Part shown: positions 2,921 through 20,668 of the stretch, one piece after another
Layout: each line of letters opens with the position of its first letter
Numbering within the stretch: the first letter of the stretch is position 1
Source of the DNA: a virus
IMG/VR virus record: IMGVR_UViG_3300032677_001428
Location: 1-20,668 of that record
Reading direction: 5' to 3' (one strand)
DNA: 20,668 nucleotides
Notes under the pieces: generated by a model
Databases searched by the model: none
What the model was told of the DNA's origin: nothing
What the model saw: the letters and a program-made list of their open reading frames with translations, nothing else
Position numbers and translations under genes: made by a program

Positions 2921-3877
2921 ATGGCACGTAAACCAAACACTAAGAAGGCAGCCGCAGCAGAAGAAAAGACTGTTCCGGTTGAGAAGATTCATGAGATCGC
3001 AGAACAGGCTGCTGCCGAGCAACAAGCTCCGCAAGAAGGCCAGATTCAAGTCAACGTAGATTTCTTACGTACAACTAAGGTTCATATCGCAATGCCTTGT
3101 TACGGTGGCATGTTGACTGAATCTACATTCATGTCATTCATCAAGTGGGCAAACACTGCCCGTCAACTTGGTATTGATTGGACCTTAGAGACTATGGTTA
3201 ATGAATCTCTCATCAGCCGCGCTCGTAATACGCTAACGGCAAAGTTCTTAGACATGCCTGAAGCAACTCACTTGTTCTTCGTTGACGCGGACATCGGTTG
3301 GGAACCCTGGCATTTGCTAGTCCTTCTAAATCGTGATGTTGATGTCATCGGTGGTCTTTATCCGATGAAGACGATGCCGATCAAGTGGGTCGTCAACGGG
3401 TTTGAAGGTGCTGAAGAAGGTCCTGATGGTCTTCAAGAAGTCTCTAAGGCAGGCACTGGCTTCCTTCTCATGAAGAAGCATGTATTTGAGAAGTTAAATT
3501 CTCACCCAGCAGTCAAGCAGTACAAGAACGACATTGGTCTTGATCCAAAGTATGATCAATATCTAAAGACATACTTTGATACTGCTGTACGTCAGAATCG
3601 TTACTACAGCGAGGATTGGACTTTTTGCGAGAACCTTAGGGATTTAGGCGGCAAGATTTGGGTTGACAAGCGTGTACTTCTCCGTCACTCAGGTTCATAT
3701 GTGTTCTGCATGGAGAACCAGCAGCATCTCATGAGCAGTATCGGCCCGATGTATGTTCAAGAGCAGCAAAACATTGCTGCACAGCAGGCTGCACAAGATC
3801 CGATCACCGAGCCTCTATCACCTGCTGATGCTGCCGCTGCCGCTGCTGCATCAGCAGGTATTCCTGCTGCTGCTTAA
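2921..3877 (+). CDS. GT-A fold glycosyltransferase-like protein
   Basis: This 318-residue protein has a Lys/Ala/Glu-rich N-terminal tail (1-50), a GT-A (family 2-like) core and an Ala-rich tail. The core opens with TKVHIAMPCYGG and continues with ESLISRARNTL, typical of phage family 2-like glycosyltransferases. A DxD metal and nucleotide-sugar motif (FFVDADIGWEP, D122 and D124) follows, and then a GTGFLLMKK acceptor-side segment. T4-like phages of aquatic bacteria often carry such genes among virion genes. They are thought to glycosylate virion proteins or host surface sugars, but the substrate is not predictable here. The start has a good AGAGGA site, and a strong terminator follows the gene, so it is probably transcribed alone from the box at 2881. 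Confidence 0.85.
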   Translation: MARKPNTKKAAAAEEKTVPVEKIHEIAEQAAAEQQAPQEGQIQVNVDFLRTTKVHIAMPCYGGMLTESTFMSFIKWANTARQLGIDWTLETMVNESLISRARNTLTAKFLDMPEATHLFFVDADIGWEPWHLLVLLNRDVDVIGGLYPMKTMPIKWVVNGFEGAEEGPDGLQEVSKAGTGFLLMKKHVFEKLNSHPAVKQYKNDIGLDPKYDQYLKTYFDTAVRQNRYYSEDWTFCENLRDLGGKIWVDKRVLLRHSGSYVFCMENQQHLMSSIGPMYVQEQQNIAAQQAAQDPITEPLSPADAAAAAAASAGIPAAA

Positions 3878-3902
3878 TTGCTACCGATAACTATTAAGAT
3901 TG

Positions 3903-3929
3903 GGGCCTCAGAAATGGGGCCCTTTTTTT
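3903..3929 (+). terminator. Intrinsic terminator after the glycosyltransferase gene
   Basis: A 7-bp stem (3903-3909 with 3916-3922, GGGCCTC/GGGGCCC with one G-T wobble) closes a 6-base loop and is followed by seven T. It lies 25 bases after the stop codon and directly before the next promoter box. Confidence 0.85.
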
Positions 3930-3936
3930 ATTACAT

Positions 3937-3944
3937 GATAAATA
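3937..3944 (+). promoter_or_regulatory. Late-type promoter box GATAAATA
   Basis: T4-late-like octamer located just after a terminator and 24 bases before the next start codon. The identical octamer recurs upstream of four other genes in the window. Confidence 0.6.
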
Positions 3945-3968
3945 CTACATCACTATGGGATCAATTCA

Positions 3969-5357
3969 ATGAAAATCAATGATATCTACGAAAGCACAAC
4001 ATCTGGCTCTGTCGCTACAGTAGCACAACCGATGACAGGCGGCGCATTAAAGCGTGTTGGCCAAGGTGTTTACGGCAAGCAAAAGGGCGGCAATCTATTG
4101 ACTGGTACAAAGAAGAAGGGTCCGTATGCTAATAGTTTGCGTGAGTCTGAAGAAGTTCATGTTGTTTATATAGACGGCAAGCCAGCAACTAAATCTACAA
4201 ATGAAAAAGATGCTAAACGCCATGTAGAAATCATGAAGGCAAAACATCCTGATAAAAAGTATGAAATCAAAAAAGAGATTAGAGAAGGAGAAGAAGTAGA
4301 AAAATTCATTGTAACATACTATAGTCCTAAGCATGACAGAAATATTACCAAAACAATTTCCGCTAAAAACGAAGACGAAATTTGGAATGTTTGTCAGAAT
4401 AAAGGATTAAGTGTCATAGAAGTCAAAAAGAAAAATAATAACATTAAAGAAGATGAACTACAAGAAGATGATTTGATCCTACTTCCTGGACAAGGCCGTA
4501 CACAGAGAACTGGCTTTACTCAACATGATCCAGACAAAGCAGAACATGAAGGCGAGACATTAAAGAATAGCCTTCATACTATCGCCCGCGCCGCCATGAA
4601 GTTAGACCAACATTTATCCATACGAGATGATTTTCCAGAATGGGTTAGTGAAAAGATCGGTGCTACCAAAAGTATGATTACCTCAGTCATGCAATATCTT
4701 ATTAGCAAACAAGAGATGGATCATGATCCGGATGCAATGAATGAAATAGCGATTGGTGAAGGCGGCCAACGTCTTGTCTATTCTAGGGACGGAGTTGCGA
4801 AAGGATTCAGTGATCCTTACAGCCAAGCAGCAACCAATTGGAAAAATTCACAACAGCGCAAAGATAAACCAGAAAAACCATTCAGAATGGAGAAGCCTAC
4901 CAATGACGAGATATGGGACAAGGTAACGACTGTGATTGGTAATATGTTTCCAGATGGAGATCCTATTGATGCTTTGGGTCCATATATGGAAAAAAACGAG
5001 TTGTACTGGGATGACCTGAATAGGGCTGCTAGAAAAAATGGCTATAAGAGTGTAGAAGACTACTGGCATGATCTTGAACAACAACACGGGCAAGATACTG
5101 GAATGTATCCGATGGATGAATCAACCGGCGGCGTAATTGCTGGCGGTGGTGTCGGTGAAAGCGATGATCATGAACTCTCCGAGATCCGACGCCTCAGCGG
5201 TGTTGGTGAAGGTAAGAAGGTTGACCGCATGGTAAAACATATTGAGAAGTCCGAAGAGAAGGCCGGCAAGTCCAAGAAAGAGGCAGAAAACATCGCTTGG
5301 GCTACGGTCAACAAAAGAGGTTATCTAGACAATAAGAATCATATCAAAGGCAAGTAA
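3969..5357 (+). CDS. Mosaic virion-associated protein built of phage cassettes
   Basis: I recognise no enzyme in this 462-residue protein. It is a chain of short modules of a kind I associate with T4-like aquatic phages. It opens with a capsid-targeting-like peptide (MKINDIYE, I-Y-E at 6-8). Next come a Gly/Lys-rich segment (TSGSVATVAQPMTGG to GPYANSL) and a small alpha/beta module (VVYIDGKPATKSTNEKDA). A helical module (RDDFPEWVSEKIGATKSMI), an ELSEIRRLSGV helix and a C-terminal KHIEKSEEKAGKSKKEAENI / AWATVNKRGYLDNK module follow. It is strongly charged, has no signal peptide or membrane segment, and lies one base upstream of the next mosaic gene, so the two are co-transcribed. The site before the ATG (GGGA) is weak. 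A role inside the virion is inferred from the modules and the promoter class. Confidence 0.75.
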   Translation: MKINDIYESTTSGSVATVAQPMTGGALKRVGQGVYGKQKGGNLLTGTKKKGPYANSLRESEEVHVVYIDGKPATKSTNEKDAKRHVEIMKAKHPDKKYEIKKEIREGEEVEKFIVTYYSPKHDRNITKTISAKNEDEIWNVCQNKGLSVIEVKKKNNNIKEDELQEDDLILLPGQGRTQRTGFTQHDPDKAEHEGETLKNSLHTIARAAMKLDQHLSIRDDFPEWVSEKIGATKSMITSVMQYLISKQEMDHDPDAMNEIAIGEGGQRLVYSRDGVAKGFSDPYSQAATNWKNSQQRKDKPEKPFRMEKPTNDEIWDKVTTVIGNMFPDGDPIDALGPYMEKNELYWDDLNRAARKNGYKSVEDYWHDLEQQHGQDTGMYPMDESTGGVIAGGGVGESDDHELSEIRRLSGVGEGKKVDRMVKHIEKSEEKAGKSKKEAENIAWATVNKRGYLDNKNHIKGK

Positions 5358-5358
5358 T

Positions 5359-7380
5359 ATGAGTTCCATCCTTAAAGGATTGATGCGAGAAGGCGGTAAG
5401 CGTACTGTAAAGGGCGTTGCCGACGAGATCGCGAGTTATATCGGAGATCATCCTAGTGATTCTGCTATAGTTGATGCGGTTGAGCATGAAGCAGAGTTAA
5501 ACGACCTTGATCCTTCAGAACTCTTTGATGCGGTATATGATCACTTCAGAGACCATATTGATGAGAATCTACACAAATGGTTCAAAGAAAAGTGGGTACG
5601 CTTTGGCCCTGACGGCAAGATAAAAGGTCCTTGTGCAAGAGGCAGTTCCAAAGAAGGTAAGCCTAAATGCCTACCACAAAAGAAAGCACAAAACTTAGGC
5701 AAAAAGGGTCGCAAGTATGCAGCAGCAAAGAAGCGCAGAGAAGATCCAAATCCAGATCGTCATGGTAAGGCTAAGAATGTAGCTACTAAGAAAAAGTCCA
5801 ACGAAGATATTTCGCACTTGGATGAAAAGTGGAGTGCAAAATACAAGAGCAGCATCAATTGCTCGCATCCTAAAGGCTTCAGTCAAAAGGCTCATTGTGC
5901 TGGTAAAAAGAAACACAATGAAAGCATAGAGATGGAAATGACATGCCCAGATTGTGGTATGTGCCAGACTCACGGAAATCACACTCGCGATACATTGGAT
6001 GAGGCCTGCTGGAAAGGCTATCACAAAGAAGGTAACAAAGAACTATTCGGCAAGACTGTTCCTAACTGTGTGAAGAATGAAGGTGTGGCGGAAGCGGAAG
6101 ACAGCAAATGCCCGCCAGCCACACAAAACATCACACTTAACTTAAAAAATCGTCAAAAGGCCATTGATGAATATGGTTATGGTCCACTCAACCCAGACAT
6201 GCCCAATCGTAAATTTTGGCAGGCCAAAGTTGAAGAATGGAATCTGGACTCACCAGAAGAGGCAAAGCAAAGTCTTTGCGGCAATTGTGCGGCATTTGAT
6301 CAGCGAGAGGCCACACTGGATTGTATTGCTCAGGGCATAGGTTCAGATGCCGGCGAAAACGATCCTACCATCCAAGCAGGCGATCTTGGTTATTGTCGTT
6401 TCTTGAAGTTCAAATGTGCTAGCCGAAGAACCTGCGATGCCTGGGTTACCGGTGGCCCACTCACTGATGAGCAAGGTGTAGCGGAAGAAAAATGCCCACA
6501 TTGTGGTGGTGAGTTAGTCAGCGAAGAGATGATGAACGAAAAAAAAGATGCTTGCTATCGTAAAGTCAAATCTCGCTACAAGGTCTGGCCTAGTGCTTAT
6601 GCCAGTGGTGCCCTAGTTCAGTGCCGTAAAAAGGGTGCAGCAAACTGGGGCAATAAAAGTGAGAGTGTTGAAGAAGCAGCGAATGCAGCACAACAAGCGG
6701 CTATCGCTATCAATATGAAGAAGCATCATAAGAAGCCAAAACATGTAGATGAAGACTACACTGGAATAGAATCAGGTCCCAGCACTGGCCCGTTCACCGC
6801 AGAGAAGACTCCGGCAATCAATCCATACGGTGGCATGAAAGATAGAAAGTATCGCGGTGCTATCGGTGAAGATGCTCTGAACGAGATGCCAGACACATCA
6901 GGACCAGTAGGAGTTCAACCAGGTGGATGGAGAACATACAAAATAAAACCTGCAGGAACTCATATGAAGCGAGAGAGTTCAATATTAAAAGGTCTGATGA
7001 GAGAAGAAGAGAGCCTCAAGTCAAATAATCCAGTGGGTATCCCTGAAGATGAAGAGATGGATGAAGACACTTCATACGCAGGCGGTATGGGTCAAGGTGG
7101 TTATGCTGGTCAATCATACCGCAAGTTCAAGCCAAAAATGGCAGGAACTCATATGAAGCGAGAGAGTTCAATATTGAAAGGTCTGATGAGAGAAGAAGAG
7201 TTGGAAGAGGTCAGTTCTACTGGACAAGGTGGCGGGTCCGCTGGAATCGGTGGTGGCTCAATGGTAGGGGGTCCAACAACCTACGAACAAGAATACGCGA
7301 TGTTCAAGCGCAAAGGTCCCCGTAGGATAACAGCGATGACGACTGAAATGAAAAATGTCCCACCTAAAAGAAGTAGATAA
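5359..7380 (+). CDS. Cys-rich mosaic protein with repeated SSILKGLMRE modules
   Basis: This 673-residue protein has no known function. In order it contains: an N-terminal SSILKGLMREGGKR peptide; a WFKEKWVRFGPDGK segment with two Cys (GPCARG, KPKCLP; DUF5872-like); KYKSSINCSHPKGFSQKAHC; CPDCGMC; ACWKGYHKEG...VPNCV; a central Cys cluster (CGNCAAFD ... YCRFLKFKCASRRTCDAW); CPHCGGE; and DACYRKVKSRYKVWPSAYAS / GALVQCRKKGAANWG, a module I recall from many aquatic phage proteins. The C-terminal 140 residues hold two near-identical GTHMKRESSILKGLMREEE copies separated by Gly-rich linkers. Several CxxC pairs suggest metal binding. The gene starts one base after the previous stop, with AAAGGCAAG upstream, so it is coupled to it. 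It may be a virion or packaged DNA-binding protein (inference). Confidence 0.75.
   Translation: MSSILKGLMREGGKRTVKGVADEIASYIGDHPSDSAIVDAVEHEAELNDLDPSELFDAVYDHFRDHIDENLHKWFKEKWVRFGPDGKIKGPCARGSSKEGKPKCLPQKKAQNLGKKGRKYAAAKKRREDPNPDRHGKAKNVATKKKSNEDISHLDEKWSAKYKSSINCSHPKGFSQKAHCAGKKKHNESIEMEMTCPDCGMCQTHGNHTRDTLDEACWKGYHKEGNKELFGKTVPNCVKNEGVAEAEDSKCPPATQNITLNLKNRQKAIDEYGYGPLNPDMPNRKFWQAKVEEWNLDSPEEAKQSLCGNCAAFDQREATLDCIAQGIGSDAGENDPTIQAGDLGYCRFLKFKCASRRTCDAWVTGGPLTDEQGVAEEKCPHCGGELVSEEMMNEKKDACYRKVKSRYKVWPSAYASGALVQCRKKGAANWGNKSESVEEAANAAQQAAIAINMKKHHKKPKHVDEDYTGIESGPSTGPFTAEKTPAINPYGGMKDRKYRGAIGEDALNEMPDTSGPVGVQPGGWRTYKIKPAGTHMKRESSILKGLMREEESLKSNNPVGIPEDEEMDEDTSYAGGMGQGGYAGQSYRKFKPKMAGTHMKRESSILKGLMREEELEEVSSTGQGGGSAGIGGGSMVGGPTTYEQEYAMFKRKGPRRITAMTTEMKNVPPKRSR
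6952..7011 (+). repeat. 60-bp direct repeat, copy 1
   Basis: This copy matches 7141-7200 at 59 of 60 positions (A versus G at offset 36). It encodes AGTHMKRESSILKGLMREEE in the same frame. The repeat includes AGGA seven bases before an in-frame ATG at 6964, so it also carries a possible internal translation start. Confidence 0.95.
7141..7200 (+). repeat. 60-bp direct repeat, copy 2
   Basis: Second copy of the repeat at 6952-7011, 189 bases downstream (63 codons), in the same frame. Its internal ATG is at 7153. A diverged third version of the peptide (SSILKGLMREGG) forms the N-terminus of the gene at 5359. Confidence 0.95.
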
Positions 7381-9787: not shown

Positions 9788-12475
9788 ATGAATCTAAAAA
9801 CATTGAAGGCTAGAATTATTTGGCTAGCCATTGGCATAGTACTGTTCGCGACACCGGTGTTCGCACAAAGAACTGCTACACCATTAATGAATGGTTGGAA
9901 GTTTCAACAGAACTCAGCGATGACTGGCCCTGAACAACCTAACTACAATGATTCATCATGGGCTACGGTAAGCGTCCCCCATACATGGAATCGGGTTGGT
10001 TACTACACGAATCAAACGATTCCGCATCAAAATACTGCTGCTAATCAAAATCTATATCAGGGCAATGCTTGGTATAGGATTTCATTTTCTCCCCCTCCTA
10101 TGACCAATAAAAGAGTATTCCTTCAATTTGATGCTGCCAGTCGTATTGCAGAAGTATGGTTAAACGGTGTTCGTTTAGGACAACATAAAGGTGGCTTCTC
10201 AAGATTTAGATTTGATGCTACGACCGCAATGAAAACAAATGCGGTAAATGTCTTAGCAGTACGAGTTAACAATGCTGCTCCTGCTGCTGGAAATGAAACA
10301 GCAAATGTACTTCCGCTGACTATTGGAGTGGATTTCTTCGTCTACGGAGGATTGTATCGTTCAGTGTCACTCGTAACAACTCCTACTGTCCATTTTGACA
10401 TGCTTGACTACGGCGGTTCCGGAATGTATGCAACTGCTGCTAATGTGTCAGCTAACTCTGCTAACCTAACAGTGGTATCTAAATTCAAGAATGATAGTAA
10501 TGCATCTGTTACAGGAGCGTCAGTAAACTATAAACTAGTTGATGCGAGCGGTAATACTAAAGCATCATGGAGTACTCCTATAAATGTTCCTATCGGTAGC
10601 AATGTTCAAGTTTCAAGTACTGTTACTGTCACATCCCCGCATCTATGGAATGGGGTCGCTGATCCCTATCTTTATCAAATCGTAGCACAACTATACACTC
10701 CTCAGGCAGGCGTACTTGATCAAATGAATCAATCATTTGGATTTCGTAATATCGTGCTTGATCCTGCTCACGGTTTATATCTGAATGGTAAGCATATCCC
10801 TCTGCACGGAGTATCTCGTCACCAAGATCGTGAAACAAAAGGTTGGGCAGTATCAGCATCTGATGAAGATCAAGATGTCTCCATCATCAAAGAAATGGGG
10901 GCGAATACTATCCGTCTAGCGCACTACGAACAGAGTGAACATATGAATGAACTATCTGATAAGAATGGACTTATCATCTGGGATGAGATTCCATTGGTGG
11001 GTGCGCTCACACTTACGCCAGGACAACCTACGCCGCCGCCAGCAGAGTTAGTAGCAAATGCCCAGCAACAACTAAAAGAATTAATCATTCAAAATTACAA
11101 TCATCCTGCTGTCGCAGTCTGGAGTATTTCAAACGAAATAGATTTGTTAGGGCCTCCGCCTGACCCTATTCCGATGTTGACTGATTTGAACAATCTTGCA
11201 CACGCAACGGATCCTAGTCGTCCAACAACACTAGCTAGTTGCTGCGAAGGTAGAAAAAATTACTCAGGAGTTTATCCTCCTAATATATCAGCTATCACTG
11301 ATACATTTGGTGCTAATCGCTATCCCGGTTGGTATTATGGTGCGGCTGGTGATATGGGTTCCATTCTAGATACCTTACATGGTAATCATTTAAATCAACC
11401 GATGTCGGTAAGCGAATATGGTGCTGGAGCAGGCATTTCTATACATACTGATAATCCATTAGGTGGGCCTTGGAATGCTTCTGGATATGCTCAGCCAGAA
11501 GGATATCAATCATACTTGCACGAAACTATCTGGCCTCAACTAAATGCAAGAGAGTATCTATGGTCTACTTGGGTATGGAATATGTTTGACTTTGCGACTA
11601 CTATCCGCACTGAAGCAGATTCAGTAAATATCAACACTAAAGGCCTAGTTACATATGATCGTACTGCTAGGAAAGATGCTTTCTACTATTATAAAGCGAA
11701 TTGGACAACTTCTCCAGTCGTACACATTGCCGAACATAATTATACCAATAGAGATTATCAGGTAACCGACGTAAAGGTATATTCTAATGTTCCTTCTGTA
11801 GAATTATTGCTCAATGATATATCATTAGGATCAAAATCAAGTTGTGCTAATGCTGTTTGTATCTGGAAAGATGTAAAACTCTCAGCAGGTAACAACAACT
11901 TAATTGCTAAATCTTCATCTGCAACAGATACTGTCATTTGGCAGCTTGATTCCATCAGAACTAGCCAAATATGGATAGCCTCAGGTTCTATCATACCGCA
12001 GACTACATCTAAAGGACTATACGGATCAGATAACTATTTCACAGGTGGAACTGGCTCTGGTACATATCGCTATGGTGGTAATTTCAGCTATAATATTCCA
12101 GCAAACAATGGAACTTACAATGTCACATTGACTTTCCTAGAACCTGATGCAAATGCTGCATCTAGTCGTGTCTTCAACGTCACTGCTAACGGTCAAGTCG
12201 TATTGAGCAACTTCAATGTTGCTACGGCTGCAGGCGGAGTCAACAAAGAGGTCACTGAAACTTTTCCGGTAACTATTTCTAACGGAAATCTAAATTTGGT
12301 CTTTACATCGGTAACAGGTGATGCTATAGTGTCTTATGTAGAAGTTACATCTACGAGCATTCTGACTAACCCTCTTGCTACGACACCAACTTTGTTAATG
12401 GTAGGAGGAGGGTTAGCAGCGGCACTTGCTGGTGCAGCAGCACTACTAGGTCGTAAGAAAAAGATAAATAGCTAA
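9788..12475 (+). CDS. Secreted GH2 beta-galactosidase-like glycosidase with malectin-like domain and C-terminal membrane anchor
   Basis: An 895-residue exported enzyme. Residues 1-26 form a Sec signal peptide (cleavage after PVFA). A sugar-binding jelly-roll (WKFQQN, VSVPHTWNR, RVFLQFDAASRIAEVWLNG) and an immunoglobulin-like domain lead to the GH2 TIM barrel: LNGKHIPLHGVSRHQD, NHPAVAVWSISNEID with acid/base E450, SEYGAGAG with probable nucleophile E543, and WSTWVWNMFDF. About 735-855 is malectin-like (YRYGGNFSYNIPANNGTYNV, VFNVTANGQVVL). The C-terminus has a hydrophobic helix (about 868-887) and GRKKK, like a tail anchor or CTERM-type sorting signal without a visible PEP. The real substrate may be any beta-glycoside. 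Signal peptide and anchor point to the periplasm or envelope. It is very unusual for a T4-like phage and was probably acquired from a bacterium. Confidence 0.9.
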   Translation: MNLKTLKARIIWLAIGIVLFATPVFAQRTATPLMNGWKFQQNSAMTGPEQPNYNDSSWATVSVPHTWNRVGYYTNQTIPHQNTAANQNLYQGNAWYRISFSPPPMTNKRVFLQFDAASRIAEVWLNGVRLGQHKGGFSRFRFDATTAMKTNAVNVLAVRVNNAAPAAGNETANVLPLTIGVDFFVYGGLYRSVSLVTTPTVHFDMLDYGGSGMYATAANVSANSANLTVVSKFKNDSNASVTGASVNYKLVDASGNTKASWSTPINVPIGSNVQVSSTVTVTSPHLWNGVADPYLYQIVAQLYTPQAGVLDQMNQSFGFRNIVLDPAHGLYLNGKHIPLHGVSRHQDRETKGWAVSASDEDQDVSIIKEMGANTIRLAHYEQSEHMNELSDKNGLIIWDEIPLVGALTLTPGQPTPPPAELVANAQQQLKELIIQNYNHPAVAVWSISNEIDLLGPPPDPIPMLTDLNNLAHATDPSRPTTLASCCEGRKNYSGVYPPNISAITDTFGANRYPGWYYGAAGDMGSILDTLHGNHLNQPMSVSEYGAGAGISIHTDNPLGGPWNASGYAQPEGYQSYLHETIWPQLNAREYLWSTWVWNMFDFATTIRTEADSVNINTKGLVTYDRTARKDAFYYYKANWTTSPVVHIAEHNYTNRDYQVTDVKVYSNVPSVELLLNDISLGSKSSCANAVCIWKDVKLSAGNNNLIAKSSSATDTVIWQLDSIRTSQIWIASGSIIPQTTSKGLYGSDNYFTGGTGSGTYRYGGNFSYNIPANNGTYNVTLTFLEPDANAASSRVFNVTANGQVVLSNFNVATAAGGVNKEVTETFPVTISNGNLNLVFTSVTGDAIVSYVEVTSTSILTNPLATTPTLLMVGGGLAAALAGAAALLGRKKKINS
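12463..12470 (+). promoter_or_regulatory. Late-type promoter box GATAAATA
   Basis: Identical octamer to 3937, 12910, 14191 and 17115. It lies within the last codons of the GH2 gene, 21 bases before the next start. Confidence 0.5.
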
Positions 12476-12983: not shown

Positions 12984-13550
12984 ATGAATAAGTTAATCGC
13001 AATCGCAGCATTCGCATTTGCTGCTATTACTACCCCAGCACTCGCTGGTACTCTATCTGCTGAAGGTCGTACTGCTTTGGCTCCTAATGCTGCTGGAGTT
13101 GATCTGTCCGCATCTGGATTAAATGCAGGTCCGGTAACACTTGGTGCAGAAGTTCAAACTGTTCAAGCTAGTCACAATGGAGCGGTAGTTGATCTATTCT
13201 CTGTTAACGCTACTAAGACATTTGCTTCGGTAGACGGTTTCACCCCTCAAGTAGGAGTTGAAGTTGGTAAGAGTGTTTCTACTGCTAAGGATTTCGGTTT
13301 CTGGGGTCTAGATGCTGGTGTCTCGCACGCTGTAGCAGGTCCAGTAACTGCGTCAGTTGGCTATCGTTATCGCCAAGGATTCGCTGATCGCAAGCTAGAA
13401 GAAAATCGCCTCAATGCAGGTCTAACTTATGCAGTGTCAAAGGCAACATCACTAGGTCTTAACTACTATCGTTATGACGAAAAGTATGTTCCGGCGCGTG
13501 TGCGTAAGGTATCTAATGTACTCGGCGTTGGTGTAAACTACAACTTCTAA
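12984..13550 (+). CDS. Phage-encoded outer-membrane beta-barrel protein
   Basis: A 188-residue exported protein. Residues 1-21 are a textbook Sec signal (MNKLIAIAAFAFAAITTPALA, cleaved before GTLS). The mature part alternates polar and hydrophobic residues in short strands (VTLGAEVQTV, TPQVGVEVGKSV, VTASVGYRYRQ, RLNAGLTYAV, TSLGLNYYRYDE) and ends VLGVGVNYNF with the C-terminal Phe recognised by the BAM machinery. It looks like a small barrel of perhaps eight strands, like Lom/OmpX/OmpA-type proteins, though no family was identified. The ribosome site is strong (AAAAGGA). Known phage-encoded outer-membrane proteins such as lambda Lom or the phage PA-2 porin alter the lysogen surface. Here, blocking superinfection is one possible role (inference). 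Confidence 0.8.
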   Translation: MNKLIAIAAFAFAAITTPALAGTLSAEGRTALAPNAAGVDLSASGLNAGPVTLGAEVQTVQASHNGAVVDLFSVNATKTFASVDGFTPQVGVEVGKSVSTAKDFGFWGLDAGVSHAVAGPVTASVGYRYRQGFADRKLEENRLNAGLTYAVSKATSLGLNYYRYDEKYVPARVRKVSNVLGVGVNYNF

Positions 13551-13643: not shown

Positions 13644-14192
13644 ATGAGAATCGGATTAAGCCAAAGAACAGTGAAACACAAAGGTAGAACCTATGATGCG
13701 ACTGATCATGGTTGGTACACCTTGTTGGCTGGACATAATCTATTTTTTCTACCTAACACAATTAAGCAAGACTTTGATCTAGTCGCAGATAATTTAGATT
13801 CATTTATAATTACTGGCGGAGCGAATAGTGAAGTCGGTGAGAATGTTGAACTTACGTTGATGTCTAAGATGATAGAACGAAAAAAGCCAGTAGTGGGAAT
13901 CTGTCAAGGGGCGTTGTTTATTGCTAAGGGTCTGGGAAGCAGCGTGCAACCTATTCCTAAGCACACGAACGTGGATCACTATGTGATGTATCACGGAGAA
14001 GCCATCAAAGTGCCTAGTGACCATGAATTAGGAATAACAAAGTTGCATGATGCCGGACAGATATTATGCCTAGCCGATACCGGAGAGATTGAGGCATTCA
14101 TAGATAATAATCTTGCAGGAGTGATGTGGAATCCTGAAAGAATGGAAAAACCTTGGATTCCTCCTGAAATAGCCTTAATACTCCGAATTTGA
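13644..14192 (+). CDS. Class I glutamine amidotransferase-like protein with substituted catalytic His
   Basis: A 182-residue protein with the class I amidotransferase / gamma-glutamyl hydrolase fold pattern: FIITGGAN, the nucleophile elbow VVGICQGALFIAKGLG (C87) and GVMWNPERMEKPW near the C-terminus. In active members the last motif reads HPE, giving His and Glu of the Cys-His-Glu triad. Here it is Asn163-Pro-Glu165, so the usual general base is missing and ordinary glutaminase activity is doubtful. Similar stand-alone proteins occur in T4-like aquatic phages, with the His, as I recall. No ribosome site is visible, because the ATG follows a late-type box by eight bases. It ends just as the next promoter box begins. 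Confidence 0.8.
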   Translation: MRIGLSQRTVKHKGRTYDATDHGWYTLLAGHNLFFLPNTIKQDFDLVADNLDSFIITGGANSEVGENVELTLMSKMIERKKPVVGICQGALFIAKGLGSSVQPIPKHTNVDHYVMYHGEAIKVPSDHELGITKLHDAGQILCLADTGEIEAFIDNNLAGVMWNPERMEKPWIPPEIALILRI

Positions 14193-14656: not shown

Positions 14657-14914
14657 ATGTCTAGAACTTTTAACAACGAAGCAAAGACTAAGCTAACCGA
14701 ACTCGTCCACGAAGGTATGGCTGTGCTACAAGAGATTGAGACCTTGCGTGAGGGTCTCGGGGATACAGTCAAGGCCATCGCAGAAGAACTGGAAATCAAG
14801 CCTAGCATCCTCAAGAAGGCAATCGCTATTGCCCACAAGTCTCGTCTTGCTGAGACTAATCAAGAAAATGCTACATTGAATGAAATTTTGGAGACTGTTG
14901 GCCAGACTTACTGA
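14657..14914 (+). CDS. dsbA: DsbA-like double-stranded DNA-binding protein
   Basis: An 85-residue helical protein: helix 1 FNNEAKTKLTELVHEGMAVLQ, then ETLREGLGDTVKAIAEELEI and KPSILKKAIAIAHKSRL. It matches my recollection of the DsbA family of T4-like phages (T4 DsbA is 89 residues), which binds double-stranded DNA and, in T4, late promoter regions. The segment DTVKAIAEELEIKPSILKKA also resembles a helix-turn-helix. It has a strong early promoter and ribosome site (AAGGAG), and its stop overlaps the polymerase start (TGATG), so the two are translationally coupled. Placement directly before the polymerase fits a replication/transcription role. Confidence 0.65.
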   Translation: MSRTFNNEAKTKLTELVHEGMAVLQEIETLREGLGDTVKAIAEELEIKPSILKKAIAIAHKSRLAETNQENATLNEILETVGQTY

Positions 14915-17112
14915 TGTATATTGACGCTATCCATGACGGCAAGAACGACCGTATCCATGTAGTAGAACGAACTCCTGAAGGTAAGCGGACGTATAAGGAA
15001 TATTCAACCAACTACACCTTATACTACGCTGATAATAAAGGCAAGTATCGTTCTATCTTCGGTGATCCGTTGTCTCGTTTCTCTACCCGCAAGAGAGCAG
15101 AGTTTGAGAAGGAACGTAGGATTCACTCTAACAAGAAATTGTTTGAGAGTGATGTGAATGTCCTATTCAGATGTTTGTCAGACAACTACCTTAACGTTGA
15201 TCCACCTAAACTCCATACTTGTTTTTTTGATATTGAAGTGGACTTTGATCCTGAACGGGGTTTTAGCCCGACGGATGATCCATTCAATCCAGTAACAGCT
15301 ATCACTTGCTATCTTGATTGGTTAGACCAACTTGTCACACTTGTCATGCCCCCAAAGCACATGACAGATGAGACAGCGCAAGAACTCACGAAAGACTTTA
15401 CTAACTGCATCCTGTTTCGCAGTGAAATTGAAATGTTTAAGACCTTCTTTGACCTGATTGAAGATGCAGATGTGCTTACTGGTTGGAACTCAGAAGGATA
15501 TGATATTCCATACTGTGTGAATCGTATCACCCGTATCATGTCAAAGGATGATACACGCAAGTTCTGTCTATTAGGGCAATTTCCTAAAGTCAGGACGTAT
15601 GAGCGATTTGGTAAGGAAGAAAAGACTTACGATCTTGTTGGCCGTATTCATATGGACTACTTGCAACTCTATAAGAAGTACAACTATGAATCTCGCCACA
15701 GTTATTCACTTGACTCTATTGGCGAATACGAATTAGGTGAACGCAAGACTCAGTATGAAGGCACACTTGATCAGTTGTATAACAAAGACTTCAAGACCTT
15801 TGTAGAATATAACAGACAAGATACGATGCTTGTCGTGAAGATTCACGATAAGCTGAGGTTCCTTGATCTTGCTAATGCACTGGCGCATGAGAACAGCGTA
15901 TTGCTGCCGACTGTTATGGGTTCGGTGGCGATGATTGAGATGGCGATCTTCAATGAAGCACACGCTCGTGGAATGATCGTTCCTGACAAGCAACGCAAAC
16001 AATCTTATGGGGATGAGCAACAAGCAGCAGGTGCATATGTCCTGCCACCTAAGGTCGGAATGCATGAATATCCGGGAGCAGTTGATATCAACTCGCTGTA
16101 TCCATCTGATATCCGTGCATTGAATATGTCTCCGGAAACTATCGTAGCACAGGTTCGTCAGACTCTAACTGATCAATATATGTATGAGAAGAGCCTGAAG
16201 CTTGCTAAAGAGAAGCGCAAGAAGAAGAACGGTGATGATGCGGAAGCAGTGACTGGTTCTGTTCTATGGGAAAATCTATTTGGTTCTCTAGAATATACTG
16301 CTATCATGAACCAAGAACGCGGCACATTGCTCACTGTTGACTATGAAGATGGTCGCAGTGTAGAGATGACCGCTGCTGAAATCTGGAAGATGGTGTTTGA
16401 TAGTAACAAACCGCTGATACTATCCGCTAATGGTACGATCTTTACGTATGAGAAAGAAGGGGTCATTCCTGGACTTCTGACGAGATGGTATACAGAACGA
16501 AAAGCCCTACAGAAACAAGCTAAAGAAGCATATGGCACTGATATGTATGAATATTATGATAAGCGTCAGCTTGTGCGTAAGATTCTGTTGAACTCAGCAT
16601 ATGGCGCACTTCTGAACGAACACTGCCGATTCTATGATAAGCGCATAGGTCAATCTGTTACCCTGTCTGGTCGTCAGATCGTGAAACATATGATGAGCCA
16701 GATCAATGAGATCATCGCAGGTGAATATAAACACGACGGTGAAGCGATTATTTACGGTGATAGTGTAACCGGAGATTCCGTTATTAGAACGGGCGACGGC
16801 GACAAAACTATTGAAGAGTTATTCAATGAGTGTCTAGAACATTCAGTTGTCGGAGAAAAAGAATATGGAGTTTGGAATGAGAATTCTGTTCTTGGATTTA
16901 ACTCGTATGAGATGGAGCCAGTCAGTGCCAAAATAAACTATGTAATGCGGCACAAAACTAAAAAGAAGTTGTATCGCATAACGACGGAAAACGGAAAACA
17001 AATCACTGTTACTGAAGATCATAGCATCATGGTTGATAGAAATGGGTTCTTGATTGAATGCAAGCCCAATGAGATTCTTGAGACTGATGGAATTATTACT
17101 TTTGTTCCGTGA
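14914..17112 (+). CDS. 43: DNA polymerase gp43 N-terminal fragment fused to an N-intein
   Basis: A 732-residue product. Residues 1-616 are the N-extein of a T4-type family B replicative polymerase. The 3'-5' exonuclease motifs are CFFDIEVDFD (D106, E108), GWNSEGYD (D197) and YNRQD (Y299, D303). Polymerase motif A is VDINSLYPS (D391) and motif B is RKILLNSAYG (K556, N560, Y563). Motif C is cut after IIYGD (D616), and residue 617 starts the intein (SVTGDSVIRTGDG). The fragment therefore holds the exonuclease, fingers and most of the palm, but only one of the two motif C aspartates. Positions align closely with T4 gp43 (D112, D408, K560, D621), so nothing else is missing. The start is coupled to dsbA (TGATG). 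It should be inactive as a polymerase until spliced to the product at 18084. Confidence 0.95.
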   Translation: MYIDAIHDGKNDRIHVVERTPEGKRTYKEYSTNYTLYYADNKGKYRSIFGDPLSRFSTRKRAEFEKERRIHSNKKLFESDVNVLFRCLSDNYLNVDPPKLHTCFFDIEVDFDPERGFSPTDDPFNPVTAITCYLDWLDQLVTLVMPPKHMTDETAQELTKDFTNCILFRSEIEMFKTFFDLIEDADVLTGWNSEGYDIPYCVNRITRIMSKDDTRKFCLLGQFPKVRTYERFGKEEKTYDLVGRIHMDYLQLYKKYNYESRHSYSLDSIGEYELGERKTQYEGTLDQLYNKDFKTFVEYNRQDTMLVVKIHDKLRFLDLANALAHENSVLLPTVMGSVAMIEMAIFNEAHARGMIVPDKQRKQSYGDEQQAAGAYVLPPKVGMHEYPGAVDINSLYPSDIRALNMSPETIVAQVRQTLTDQYMYEKSLKLAKEKRKKKNGDDAEAVTGSVLWENLFGSLEYTAIMNQERGTLLTVDYEDGRSVEMTAAEIWKMVFDSNKPLILSANGTIFTYEKEGVIPGLLTRWYTERKALQKQAKEAYGTDMYEYYDKRQLVRKILLNSAYGALLNEHCRFYDKRIGQSVTLSGRQIVKHMMSQINEIIAGEYKHDGEAIIYGDSVTGDSVIRTGDGDKTIEELFNECLEHSVVGEKEYGVWNENSVLGFNSYEMEPVSAKINYVMRHKTKKKLYRITTENGKQITVTEDHSIMVDRNGFLIECKPNEILETDGIITFVP
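16762..17109 (+). other. N-intein of split gp43 intein (residues 617-732)
   Basis: A 116-residue N-terminal splicing half. Block A is SVTGDSVIRTGDG with Ser1 as nucleophile. Block B is ENGKQITVTEDHSIMVD with the T-x-x-H pair. It ends at a stop shortly after a K-P-N-E-I-L segment. Ser rather than Cys at position 1 is known among DNA polymerase inteins. The insertion point, YGD/TDS, is the conserved polymerase site often called pol-c. Confidence 0.92.
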
Positions 17113-17114
17113 AT

Positions 17115-17122
17115 GATAAATA
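17115..17122 (+). promoter_or_regulatory. Late-type promoter box GATAAATA for the endonuclease
   Basis: Octamer three bases after the stop of the first polymerase fragment and 23 bases before the endonuclease start, with ribosome site TAGGAG (17131-17136) between. Late promoters directly upstream of homing endonuclease genes are common in T4, where they limit early expression. Confidence 0.6.
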
Positions 17123-17145
17123 TATGATGATAGGAGTATCGCCAT

Positions 17146-18108
17146 ATGATAACATGCTTAGAATGCGGTTTCGTTACCGGAAGACTACAATGGACACATT
17201 TTAAATATAAATGTACTGGAAGATTTAACAATAGTAAGGAATATCTTGCCGTATATCCAACGGCGGATATAGTATCACCGGAAGTCTCAGCTAAAACATC
17301 TGTCACCAAAAATAAACTGATAGAGAAATACGGTGAAGAGGAAGGACTACTGCGATGGAATCAATATCGGGAAAAACAAGCGACCTCAAACTCGTTTGAA
17401 TATAAACAGCAGAAACTCGGCTGGAATAAAGAACAATTTGATTCGTATAATAAATCTCGCGCTATCACGCTGAAAGGAATGATAGAAAAGTATGGAGAAT
17501 TAGATGGCATTTCTAGATGGGAGTCATATTGCAACCAGCAAGCATACTCAAATACGCTGGAATATTTCGTTGAGAAACATGGAAGAACTGATGGAATCAA
17601 AAGATTCCTGACCTACAACAAACAGAAGGGTTCTTCAAATGATCCTGTTGCAGTTTCTAAACGAATGGGCATTTCAGTTGATGAGGCAGTTGATTTGATC
17701 ATTACTCGTTACAATAAAGATGACAAAAGATGGTCAAGTGAGTTGGAACGAGAATTCACTACTATGCTTGAAGAGAAACATGGAAAGCTAGAACGGACCT
17801 CATTCTCCAGTCCGTTTGGCAAATGGTCTCATTATTTGAACGGATATGTAATTTACGACATCAAACACGATGATTGTATCATTGAATTTAATGGAGATTA
17901 TTGGCATGCCAATCCTAGCTTATATCAAGACGAAGCGGTTATTCGCGGTAAAAAAGCGAAGGATATACAAAAACGTGACGAACTCAAACTAAAAACAGTC
18001 ACTGATCTCGGATTCAGAACCTTAGTTGTCTGGGAATCCGATTTCAGAGCAGATAAAGAACAAACCATTAAGGAGGTTATTATATGGATGCAGAATGGAC
18101 CACAGTAG
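17146..18108 (+). CDS. Vsr-like (EDxHD-type) homing endonuclease within the gp43 fracture
   Basis: A 320-residue protein. The N-terminus is a zinc-finger-like module (C4, C7, H18, C23: CLECG ... LQWTHFKYKC ... KEYLAVYP), of a type common in phage endonucleases. Three repeats follow, about residues 64-160, of form KYGEEEGLLRWNQY...QATSN, KYGELDGISRWESY...QAYSN and KHGRTDGIKRFLTY, probably DNA-contacting. The C-terminal catalytic domain (about 196-305) has SSELEREF, YVIYDIK (D238), CIIEFNGDYWHANP (E247, D251, H254), KRDELK and TLVVWESDF. This resembles the Vsr-like family described with fractured split-intein genes and I-Bth0305I. It probably cleaves intein-free gene 43 near motif C. Its last 25 bases overlap the second polymerase fragment. 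Confidence 0.88.
   Translation: MITCLECGFVTGRLQWTHFKYKCTGRFNNSKEYLAVYPTADIVSPEVSAKTSVTKNKLIEKYGEEEGLLRWNQYREKQATSNSFEYKQQKLGWNKEQFDSYNKSRAITLKGMIEKYGELDGISRWESYCNQQAYSNTLEYFVEKHGRTDGIKRFLTYNKQKGSSNDPVAVSKRMGISVDEAVDLIITRYNKDDKRWSSELEREFTTMLEEKHGKLERTSFSSPFGKWSHYLNGYVIYDIKHDDCIIEFNGDYWHANPSLYQDEAVIRGKKAKDIQKRDELKLKTVTDLGFRTLVVWESDFRADKEQTIKEVIIWMQNGPQ
18068..18076 (+). promoter_or_regulatory. Near-perfect Shine-Dalgarno for the C-intein/polymerase fragment
   Basis: TTAAGGAGG with seven bases to the ATG at 18084 is the strongest ribosome site in the window. It lies inside the endonuclease coding sequence, so one message can yield both products. The ATG at 18088 is in the endonuclease frame and is not this start. 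Confidence 0.85.
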
Positions 18109-18209
18109 CTAAGATAGAATGCTTGGGCGAGGTAGATGATTATGTGTATGATTTAAGCATTGAGGATCAAGATCCATTTTTCTTTGCCAACGACATACTG
18201 GTACACAAT
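18084..18209 (+). other. C-intein of split gp43 intein (residues 1-42)
   Basis: It contains block F (DDYVYDLSIEDQDPFF) and block G (FANDILVHN), with penultimate His41 and terminal Asn42, followed by Thr as the +1 extein residue. All residues needed for Asn cyclisation and transesterification are present, so the half looks functional. Confidence 0.93.
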
Positions 18210-19067
18210 ACCGACTCGTGTTATTTCTCTGCCTATGCTATCCTAAAGGAACAGATTGATAAGGGTGAGGTGGAATGGTCTAAGGAGATGTGCATAGAAC
18301 TCTATGATAACATCGCAGATCAGACAAATGCCAGCTTCCCTGCGTTCATGGAGAAGTCATTCCATTGTCCAAGAAAGAACGGTGACATCATCAAGGCTGG
18401 GCGTGAACTCATCGGTGAGCGTTCTATCTTCATCACTAAGAAGCGTTATGCTATCAATATCTTTGATAAAGAAGGCAAACGCAAAGATGTGAATGGCAAG
18501 AACGGTGAGATCAAAGCGATGGGTCTTGACCTCAAGCGAGCAGATACTCCTAAGTATGTTCAAGAGTTTCTAATGGAAATTCTCGTCATGGTCCTCGGAG
18601 GTAAGCAACGCGATGAAGTCATTGAAAAGATCAAGGAGTTCAAGAATCATCTATCCCAACAAGATTCTTGGACTAAGGGTTCACCTAAGTCTGTCAATAA
18701 TCTGACGAACCATACTATCAAGTTTGAGAAGACTGGCGTGTGTTCAGTTGGTCATGCGAGAGCAGCAATTAACTATAACTATTTGCGTAAGATGAACAGT
18801 GACAACTATAGCCAGAAGATCGTTGACGGCATGAAGGTCATCGTCTGCAAGCTACGAACTAACGCATTAGGGTTTACTTCAATCGCATATCCTACAGATG
18901 AACTCCGTCTTCCACAATGGTTCCTTGATCTACCATTTGATGACAAGGATATGGAAAGGATTCTCGTAGATGAGAAGATTGATAATCTCTTGTCAGTGTT
19001 GAACTGGGATATTCGTAGTAATACTGATACAAATTCAACCTTTGATGAATTATTCAGTTTCGGTTAA
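18084..19067 (+). CDS. 43: DNA polymerase gp43 C-terminal fragment preceded by a C-intein
   Basis: A 327-residue product in a different frame from the first fragment. Residues 1-42 are the C-intein and residue 43 is the +1 Thr. The C-extein (285 residues) begins TDSCYFSAY, supplying the second motif C aspartate. It continues with the FITKKRYAINI motif of the palm and the thumb, and ends STFDELFSFG, which resembles the C-terminal clamp-binding peptide of T4/RB69 polymerase (FDMFDF). N- and C-exteins add up to 901 residues against 898 in T4 gp43. There is no promoter of its own; it is read from upstream transcripts using the strong internal ribosome site. The gene at 19146 encodes its processivity clamp. 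Confidence 0.95.
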   Translation: MDAEWTTVAKIECLGEVDDYVYDLSIEDQDPFFFANDILVHNTDSCYFSAYAILKEQIDKGEVEWSKEMCIELYDNIADQTNASFPAFMEKSFHCPRKNGDIIKAGRELIGERSIFITKKRYAINIFDKEGKRKDVNGKNGEIKAMGLDLKRADTPKYVQEFLMEILVMVLGGKQRDEVIEKIKEFKNHLSQQDSWTKGSPKSVNNLTNHTIKFEKTGVCSVGHARAAINYNYLRKMNSDNYSQKIVDGMKVIVCKLRTNALGFTSIAYPTDELRLPQWFLDLPFDDKDMERILVDEKIDNLLSVLNWDIRSNTDTNSTFDELFSFG

Positions 19068-19866: not shown

Positions 19867-20668
19867 TTAGGAGCTATAGATCATAAAAGCAAAGAGAAAG
19901 CCTTGATCTACTGAGGCTTTCTCTTTAGCTAAATTTTTTTCTTCATCTATTTTAAAAGTCCAGGTAGATTTTACTTCAACTATCTGATTTTTACTAATTA
20001 TGTAAATATCGGGGAAATATATGCGTTTCTTTCCATCGTATACATATGTTATCTTGGGGGTTTGTGAAGATCCAATTAATAGGTCATCTTCACCGTATAT
20101 AGGCAGTAACTCATCTAGCGCGCGGTCTTCATATCCTTGAATATTAACTTGTTTTCCGGAAGGTAATGTATATTTGCGTGTTTTAAATTTCTGTTGTTTA
20201 GCTTGAATTTCAGGAACTTGACTTATGTGGCACCCGTATTTTTTCTGCCAAGCCAATGCTATATTATCTATTCTAGATTGGCGCCTACTTGGATCAGACC
20301 AATCTTGTTTTAACCGATCTATTCCTTCTGTGCTAGCAAAGTAATTTTCAGCTCCATATCGTTCTAGAACGGTTGCCTTGATCTTATCTTGTATTTCGGC
20401 TGATTTAGCCGGATTACCAACTCCATATTTTTTAAGCCAGGTGTTCTTTCGCTTTTGGTTAGATTCGCTATTTTTGTTTGCTGCTCCTCTTTTAGAAAAC
20501 ATAAAATATTTTGATCCAAACCATCTTGCCGGCCGCCCAGTATCAATCGTTAATACTATTTCTAATTTATCATTTAGTATATGCCAACATCTTTGTTTTG
20601 GAGTAGCACTCGCTGGCAAAAAAGAAGTAATAGAGACTATTTCGGCCCATAATTCAGGATTGTTTTTT
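19867..20668 (-). CDS. Homing-endonuclease-like protein with PD-(D/E)xK core, 5' end outside window
   Basis: The minus-strand frame stays open to the right edge. A TTG at 20619 is not a convincing start, because the upstream codons (ELWAEIVSITSFLP) read as family sequence, so the gene is 5'-partial. The N-terminal part has SFLPASATPKQRCWHIL, then NUMOD-like repeats (WLKKYGVGNPAKSAEIQDKI, VLERYGAENYFAS). The C-terminal part is a PD-(D/E)xK-type nuclease: GYEDRALDELLPIY, YFPDIYI (PD at 20008-20013) and IVEVKST (E-V-K at 19969-19977), with ten residues between D and E. It is probably a free-standing mobile endonuclease inserted next to gene 45. It lies opposite to all other genes in the window, with two bases between its stop and the clamp stop. 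Confidence 0.8.
   Translation of the reverse strand, partial: KNNPELWAEIVSITSFLPASATPKQRCWHILNDKLEIVLTIDTGRPARWFGSKYFMFSKRGAANKNSESNQKRKNTWLKKYGVGNPAKSAEIQDKIKATVLERYGAENYFASTEGIDRLKQDWSDPSRRQSRIDNIALAWQKKYGCHISQVPEIQAKQQKFKTRKYTLPSGKQVNIQGYEDRALDELLPIYGEDDLLIGSSQTPKITYVYDGKKRIYFPDIYIISKNQIVEVKSTWTFKIDEEKNLAKEKASVDQGFLFAFMIYSS
19888..19940 (+). terminator. Strong, probably bidirectional terminator between convergent genes
   Basis: A perfect 13-bp stem (19891-19903 with 19914-19926) with a 10-base loop, extended by three more pairs past a bulged A. A T run at 19934-19940 serves the plus strand. The structure lies inside the last codons of the minus-strand gene. On that strand the following TTTGCTTTTAT is a weaker T run. 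Confidence 0.85.

What the first reader, a model, noticed from the sequence alone, without database searches (positions are those of the whole stretch)
16762..18209. DNA polymerase fractured in motif C by a split intein
The first fragment ends with a complete N-intein (SVTGDS..., TEDH). The second begins with a complete C-intein (YVYDLSIED..., FANDILVHN) followed by Thr. Joining exteins rebuilds YGD-TDS, and the 901-residue total matches T4 gp43. The halves lie in different frames, separated by an endonuclease gene. Fractured genes with split inteins are published for several phage and metagenomic genes. A Ser1 split intein exactly at gp43 motif C may be a new allele and a new trans-splicing tool-like pair.
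Basis: partly seen in the sequence, partly recalled or inferred. Interest (0 to 1): 0.93.

Follow-up and report, generated by a model that had tools for sequence, protein, structure and literature searches.

The report
Split-intein phage polymerase carrying homing cassette
A jumbo-type phage DNA polymerase gene is broken into two genes by a mobile split intein plus its own DNA-cutting enzyme, so the working polymerase must be stitched together after translation; the arrangement is of an already known kind, but its relatives show the element jumping between phages and repeatedly reverting to an unbroken form.

Summary
N half 14914-17112 is 616 aa of polymerase ending YGD plus a 116-aa N-intein. 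C half 18084-19067 is a 42-aa C-intein plus T-DS and 285 aa. Between them lies a separate endonuclease gene with a Vsr fold (17146-18108). Five near-identical copies and dozens of diverged relatives keep the layout, so it is not an assembly error. It is not a new kind: Aeromonas Aes123/Aes508, Campylobacter CP21, Tenacibaculum PTm1 and Pseudomonas MIJ3/PA5oct have annotated or published split PolB inteins with a nuclease gene between the halves. YGD|TDS is the published pol-c site; the Aes/CP21/PTm1/PA5oct inteins sit two residues later. New here, at family level: (i) homing footprints, i.e. near-identical inteins in saturated-divergent polymerases with 23-44 bp co-converted downstream; (ii) many HEN losses and five separate cis inteins, one traceable to a 952-bp deletion of a split cassette; (iii) a late-promoter motif and a possible RBS hairpin before the endonuclease, as for T4 I-TevI. 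Splicing, cutting and the hairpin are inferred, not shown.

The parts
14914..16761 (+). N-extein of family B DNA polymerase (exonuclease and first part of the polymerase domain, ends in YGD of motif C), 616 aa
   Evidence: Pfam PF03104 and PF00136; phrog_262 E 1.1e-141
16762..17109 (+). N-intein, 116 aa: Ser1, block N3 TEDH, block NX His64
   Evidence: PF14890 E 5.7e-10; Aes123 PolB1 structure 9hth E 8.6e-15; alignment A3
17110..17112 (+). TGA stop of the N half; three further in-frame stops follow before the endonuclease ATG
   Evidence: sequence
17116..17122 (+). T4-type late promoter motif ATAAATA, 23 nt before the endonuclease ATG
   Evidence: the same motif upstream of the endonuclease in 38 of 59 relatives; all 7 copies in the window lie on the + strand
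17122..17147 (+). possible RNA hairpin with the ribosome-binding site AGGAG (17132-17136) in its loop and the start codon in the 3' arm
   Evidence: pair count with changes on both sides in 6 of 10 pairs; single-sequence fold of 17105-17165 at -7.9 kcal/mol; RNAalifold predicted no consensus structure
17146..18108 (+). homing endonuclease gene, 320 aa: CxxC-H-C zinc-finger-like N terminus, helical repeats, Vsr-fold catalytic domain (residues about 190-320)
   Evidence: alignment A2; profile match to Vsr E 0.01; model pLDDT 90; VIA-align Z 12.0 to Vsr 1cw0 and 10.7 to I-Bth0305I
18070..18076 (+). Shine-Dalgarno AAGGAGG for the C half, inside the endonuclease gene
   Evidence: sequence; upstream sequences of relatives
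18084..18108 (+). 25-nt overlap of endonuclease end and C-half start
   Evidence: the same 25-nt overlap in most relatives
18084..18209 (+). C-intein, 42 aa, ends ...ANDILVHN
   Evidence: PF14890 positions 117-155, E 2.3e-6
18210..19067 (+). C-extein, 285 aa, starts Thr+1-Asp-Ser (rest of motif C and C-terminal part of the polymerase)
   Evidence: phrog_262 and phrog_1918

Best explanation
This is a mobile split-intein cassette at the pol-c site of a jumbo-type phage PolB. Three proteins are made. The two half-polymerases bind through their intein halves and trans-splice (Ser1 N-O shift, transfer to Thr+1, Asn cyclisation) to give an unbroken 901-aa polymerase with an intact YGDTDS catalytic motif (inferred). 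The middle protein is a Vsr-fold homing endonuclease that cuts intein-less polB alleles just downstream of the insertion point, so the whole cassette is copied in (cutting inferred; transfer shown by footprints in relatives). A late promoter at the end of the N half, and possibly a hairpin hiding the ribosome-binding site, keep endonuclease expression to late infection (inferred by analogy with T4 I-TevI). In relatives the endonuclease is repeatedly deleted, leaving a split intein without endonuclease and at times a re-fused cis intein.
For: Anatomy. Intact splicing residues and best structural relative 9hth. Uninterrupted sister polymerases L014 and (for L012) L028 have the exact empty site. 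Homing footprints: pairs with 98-100% identical N-inteins but flanks only 71-82% (one 53%) identical share 23-44 bp downstream of the site (controls: median 2, maximum 9) and 0-24 bp upstream (controls: 95th percentile 9); intein synonymous differences 0.00-0.08 against 0.71-0.98 in flanking exteins. L012 against intein-less L028: 8 of 42 bp differ just downstream, 32 of 808 beyond, Fisher p 4e-4. Endonuclease fold. Endonuclease losses on the tree. Cis forms: 5, needing 5 changes; L186 equals L130 minus 952 bp, 472 of 480 bp identical. Late promoter; regulation precedent PMC2988022.
Against: No splicing or cutting data. RNAalifold predicts no consensus hairpin for the 35-sequence set; the pair-count support is modest and shuffles are inflated by relatedness. 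For the window itself a recent transfer is not shown: intein and extein are both saturated against L012/L093, and the downstream excess of differences to L014 is not significant (p 0.07). Host and full genome of this phage are unknown.
Confidence: 0.9

Rival explanations
1. The two halves never splice but work as a non-covalent two-subunit polymerase, with the intein pieces as dead tails (as for split 43A/43B polymerases without inteins).
For: T4-type polymerases split without inteins exist: in Aes508 and Aes123 a further break (43A/43B) has no intein.
Against: The break lies between the catalytic residues of motif C, where unspliced tails would sit in the active site; Ser1, TxxH, NX His, HN and Thr+1 are kept across the aligned split relatives; intein amino acids stay conserved while synonymous sites saturate; cis forms of the same intein exist with the same residues.
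Confidence: 0.05
2. A cis intein with an internal endonuclease, broken by frameshift or assembly error.
For: Cis forms exist among relatives; N half and endonuclease are in one frame.
Against: Several stops separate N half and endonuclease; the C half has its own SD and start with a 25-nt overlap kept in most relatives; five near-identical and dozens of diverged copies show the same breaks.
Confidence: 0.02
3. The split intein is now fixed and no longer mobile in this phage; the endonuclease is a passenger kept only because it carries the start signals of the C half.
For: In the window both intein and extein are saturated against the nearest split relatives, so no recent jump is visible; the C-half SD lies inside the endonuclease gene.
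Against: Catalytic Vsr-domain residues are conserved and the nearest polymerases L014-L016 lack the intein; endonuclease loss without loss of the C half occurs at least 10 times elsewhere, so the full gene is dispensable for expression.
Confidence: 0.2

Closest known systems
Aes123/Aes508 PolB1 split intein with putative VSR endonuclease (Aeromonas T4-like phages; PDB 9hth)
   Same: Same order N-intein, Vsr-like endonuclease, C-intein; Ser1; NX His (His68 there, His64 here); endonuclease 36% identical over 81%; also overlapping genes
   Different: Inserted two residues later (YIDTD|S, +1 Ser) against YGD|TDS, +1 Thr here; N-intein only 33% identical; not cysteine-less here (Cys at non-catalytic positions); the Aes polymerase is also split elsewhere
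MIJ3/PA5oct PolB split intein (Pseudomonas jumbo phages; PMC6892783)
   Same: Polymerase split at motif C by a split intein with an endonuclease gene between; N-intein 41% identical, C-extein 46%
   Different: Endonuclease is of another, Hef/HNH-annotated type; intein sits at YGDTD|S
pol-c PolB inteins (archaea, Mimivirus, split Nanoarchaeum PolI; PMC549080)
   Same: Identical insertion point YGD|TDS; Ser1 and Thr+1 in Mimivirus
   Different: Mimivirus is cis with a LAGLIDADG endonuclease; Nanoarchaeum is split as two separate genes (NEQ068, NEQ528); sequence similarity to the archaeal inteins is remote
'Fractured genes' of Dassa et al. 2009 (gp41, NrdJ, IMPDH and others; from my own knowledge and citations, paper not held)
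   Same: Gene broken by split intein halves flanking a free-standing endonuclease ORF of a Vsr-related family
   Different: Host gene and insertion site
T4 I-TevI, I-TevII, I-TevIII, SegB and Aeh1 MobE regulation (PMC2988022)
   Same: Late promoter just upstream and a predicted hairpin over the ribosome-binding site
   Different: Those are GIY-YIG or HNH enzymes of introns or free-standing; here a split-intein Vsr-like enzyme; hairpin not experimentally shown

Membership tests
Naturally split class-1 intein, canonical split site | Ser1/Cys1, block N3 TxxH, C-terminal His-Asn, +1 Ser/Thr/Cys | tested here: met
   S1, T84-E-D-H87, H41-N42 of the C-intein, Thr+1
Naturally split class-1 intein, canonical split site | IntN about 100-120 aa and IntC about 35-45 aa, split at the endonuclease position | tested here: met
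   116 and 42 aa; Pfam profile positions 9-93 and 117-155
Naturally split class-1 intein, canonical split site | Trans-splicing activity | not testable with these tools
   needs protein expression
Cysteine-independent (Ser1) inteins of the Aes type | Block NX histidine | tested here: met
   His64 aligns with Aes His68, invariant in 21 sequences (PMC13014065)
Aes123 PolB1 intein allele | Same insertion point (Y.DTD|S) | tested here: not met
   window YGD|TDS; Aes508, PTm1, CP21, PA5oct after .TD|S
pol-c intein allele | Insertion point YGD|TDS | tested here: met
   definition in PMC549080
pol-c intein allele | Closest in sequence to archaeal pol-c inteins | tested here: inconclusive
   PDB ranking 9hth, MJ0781, then PI-PkoII E 5.5e-4; no tree with archaeal inteins made
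Fractured-gene arrangement (Dassa 2009) | Free-standing endonuclease ORF between N- and C-intein genes | tested here: met
Vsr-like / I-Bth0305I homing endonucleases | Vsr-type catalytic fold with conserved acidic/His residues | tested here: met
   Z 12.0 to 1cw0, 10.7 to 3r3p; D238, E247, H254, W296-E297 conserved
Vsr-like / I-Bth0305I homing endonucleases | Site-specific cutting of the empty allele | not testable with these tools
   only indirect: co-conversion footprints
T4 I-TevI-type expression control | Late promoter within the locus | tested here: met
   motif only: ATAAATA upstream in 38 of 59 relatives, about 0.5 expected; promoter activity not tested
T4 I-TevI-type expression control | Hairpin sequestering the ribosome-binding site | tested here: inconclusive
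   79% of cells paired and 6 pairs with double changes, slid controls at most 58% and 3; RNAalifold finds no consensus

The most novel reading that the evidence does not exclude
Split (fractured) PolB inteins are not an evolutionary dead end: in phages they run a full homing cycle in which the split cassette jumps between diverged polymerases, loses its endonuclease many times, and is re-fused into a cis intein by simple deletion, so that some cis mini-inteins descend from split ones, the reverse of the usual scheme.
Probability: 0.8. Interest if true: 0.55.

Novelty: new member of a known kind. Interest (0 to 1): 0.4.

Why it matters
The locus itself adds one more natural Ser1 split intein to a toolbox that engineers actively seek, at a site where dozens of diverged natural pairs now exist for choosing fast or orthogonal ones. 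At family level it makes an old question directly testable: how split inteins arise, spread and revert. Pairs such as L130 (split, with endonuclease) and L186 (cis, endonuclease deleted) differ in the intein by one deletion and eight substitutions and could be compared side by side.

Tried and rejected
Megablast of the locus against phage records: no match. Rfam on the window: no match. TATAAATA in full is absent from the window; only ATAAATA is present, and its total number is not above chance (7 found, 5.8 expected), so its position and strand carry the argument. RNAalifold gave no consensus structure for the leader. Read-through from N half into endonuclease rejected (further stops). Assembly error rejected. 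Gain/loss counting on the extein tree (4 changes) is not used as evidence because intein-less genes were sampled only near the window. A recent transfer into the window itself could not be shown. The genome-contig scan returned only remote, mostly archaeal, inteins. I did not find a published description of split-to-cis reversion in the paper searches, judging by titles and abstracts; the library lacks most subscription papers, and Dassa 2009 is not held. An alignment call with wrong coordinates failed, a script ended early on a missing row (after the lines used here).
Full report
OBSERVATION. The N half (14914-17112, 732 aa) is a family B polymerase that stops being polymerase at YGD (residue 616) and continues with a 116-aa N-intein. 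The C half (18084-19067, 327 aa) begins with a 42-aa C-intein ending VHN and continues Thr-Asp-Ser plus the rest of the polymerase. The exteins add up to 901 aa. Pfam's Intein_splicing model matches both ends with complementary parts of the profile. Relatives without any intein, for example L014 (95% and 92% identical exteins), have YGDTDS uninterrupted with the junction at the same base.

NOT AN ARTEFACT. The same break is found in five further IMG/VR contigs with 1-4 differences in 3,067 nt and in the diverged L012, L093, L113 and L075. In most of the diverged relatives with a full endonuclease the C-half start overlaps the endonuclease end by exactly 25 nt. The C half has a perfect AAGGAGG 7 nt before its ATG, and its frame is closed 4 codons upstream. 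The N-half TGA is followed by TGA, TGA and TAG in the same frame before the endonuclease ATG, so neither read-through nor a frameshifted single gene explains it.

SPLICING MACHINERY. Ser1, the TEDH block, the penultimate His and final Asn, and Thr+1 are present. His64 aligns with His68 of the Aes123 PolB1 intein, the block NX histidine that recent work finds only in cysteine-independent inteins (PMC13014065; PMC12707363). The best structural relative of the N-intein is that same Aes123 intein, 9hth (E 8.6e-15). That it splices is inference.

ENDONUCLEASE. The 320-aa protein has a conserved CxxC...H...C start, helical repeats and a C-terminal catalytic domain. Its profile matches E. coli Vsr weakly (E 0.01). 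The model (mean pLDDT 90, pTM 0.58) superposes on Vsr (Z 12.0, 117 residues) and on the catalytic domain of the homing endonuclease I-Bth0305I (Z 10.7, 96 residues). Annotated 'putative VSR endonuclease' genes of Aeromonas phages at the same place are 36% identical.

WHAT IS KNOWN. Aes508 and Aes123 records annotate N-intein, VSR endonuclease and C-intein in this order. Tenacibaculum PTm1 and Campylobacter CP21 have the same order. The MIJ3 paper describes a split PolB intein with an endonuclease. The Aes intein is an engineered, crystallised trans-splicing tool. Those inteins, however, sit two residues downstream (.TD|S). The window's YGD|TDS is the pol-c site, where Mimivirus, archaeal and split Nanoarchaeum inteins sit (PMC549080), and also Salicola SCTP-2 (cis) and Klebsiella phiKp_21 (split, endonuclease 31% identical). 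So neither the arrangement nor the site is new.

STATES OF THE FAMILY. Among 83 distinct motif-C intein loci, 59 were classed as split with an endonuclease-sized ORF, 14 as split with it deleted or eroded (Vsr-domain remnants are often readable), 3 as cis, and 7 were cut by contig ends (the class is by ORF length, so a few distant members may carry another ORF there). On the intein tree the losses need at least 10 separate changes. A second scan added cis L289 and L306, giving five cis inteins that need five changes, at least three forced by well-supported branches. The clearest case: the cis intein of L186 equals the split cassette of L130 (472 of 480 bp) minus 952 bp, with an AAAA repeat at the break; it still carries the last 13 bp before the old C-half ATG, and that ATG. 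Direction split to cis is therefore well supported for this pair.

MOBILITY. L186/L130, L193/L132 and L207/L111 have inteins with synonymous differences of 0.00-0.08 in polymerases whose flanks differ at 0.71-0.98 of synonymous sites. In the seven such pairs (five independent) identity continues 23-44 bp into the C-extein, against a median of 2 and a maximum of 9 bp in 314 control pairs; upstream it usually stops within 0-9 bp (one pair 24). L012 and intein-less L028, otherwise 95% identical, differ at 8 of the first 42 downstream bases but 32 of the next 808 (Fisher p 4e-4; the 42-bp cut was chosen after seeing the data), with no excess upstream. I infer that the enzyme cuts in the first codons of the C-extein. 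For the window itself the nearest polymerases (L014, L015, L016) lack the intein, but no recent footprint is significant.

EXPRESSION. All seven ATAAATA motifs of the window lie on the + strand, four of them 21-24 nt before start codons, as expected of T4-type late promoters. One lies 23 nt before the endonuclease ATG, and 38 of 59 relatives have the motif upstream of theirs (about 0.5 expected). The following 26 nt can fold with the Shine-Dalgarno in the loop: 79% of cells are paired and 6 of 10 pairs show double changes, against at most 58% and 3 in slid versions, but RNAalifold predicts no consensus fold. This is the I-TevI/MobE logic (PMC2988022): polymerase halves made early from a message in which the endonuclease start is hidden, endonuclease made late. 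It remains a proposal.

VERDICT. A real, well-preserved, new member of a known kind. The reusable result is the family-level cycle of homing, endonuclease loss and re-fusion.

Noticed in passing
L186 5001-5480 versus L130; also L177, L289, L306: Cis inteins nested among split ones; L186 derives from an L130-like split cassette by deletion of the endonuclease, scar defined to within 4 bp.
   Followed up: yes
window 9788-12475: GH2 glycosidase with Malectin domain, apparent signal peptide and a hydrophobic, basic C-terminal tail resembling a PEP-CTERM-type anchor, on a phage contig; no PHROG match.
   Followed up: no
window 19867-20667, minus strand: A second homing-endonuclease-like gene (DUF7487, E 1.2e-38) on the opposite strand just after the polymerase region.
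   Followed up: no
window 12984-13550 and 13644-14192: Porin-like outer-membrane protein and a peptidase C26/GATase-type protein in the phage contig.
   Followed up: no
window 3938, 7493, 8278, 12464, 12911, 14192, 17116: Seven ATAAATA motifs, all on + strand, none on minus; four sit 21-24 nt before start codons, suggesting T4-type late promoters.
   Followed up: partly
L024-L027 (polymerase residue about 535), L041 and L083 (residue about 113), L075 (about 535): Gaps of about 0.3-1.2 kb in the polymerase coding sequence at other fixed points, perhaps introns or further inserts.
   Followed up: no
L004 (PA5oct) 3171-4853: At a motif-C split intein two residues downstream, a different (Hef/HNH-annotated) endonuclease occupies the slot, so the nuclease type seems exchangeable.
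   Followed up: no
L236 (Prevotella Lak-C1) 5001-6871: Lak megaphages carry the same order of N-intein, related endonuclease (34%) and C-intein, in records without annotation.
   Followed up: no
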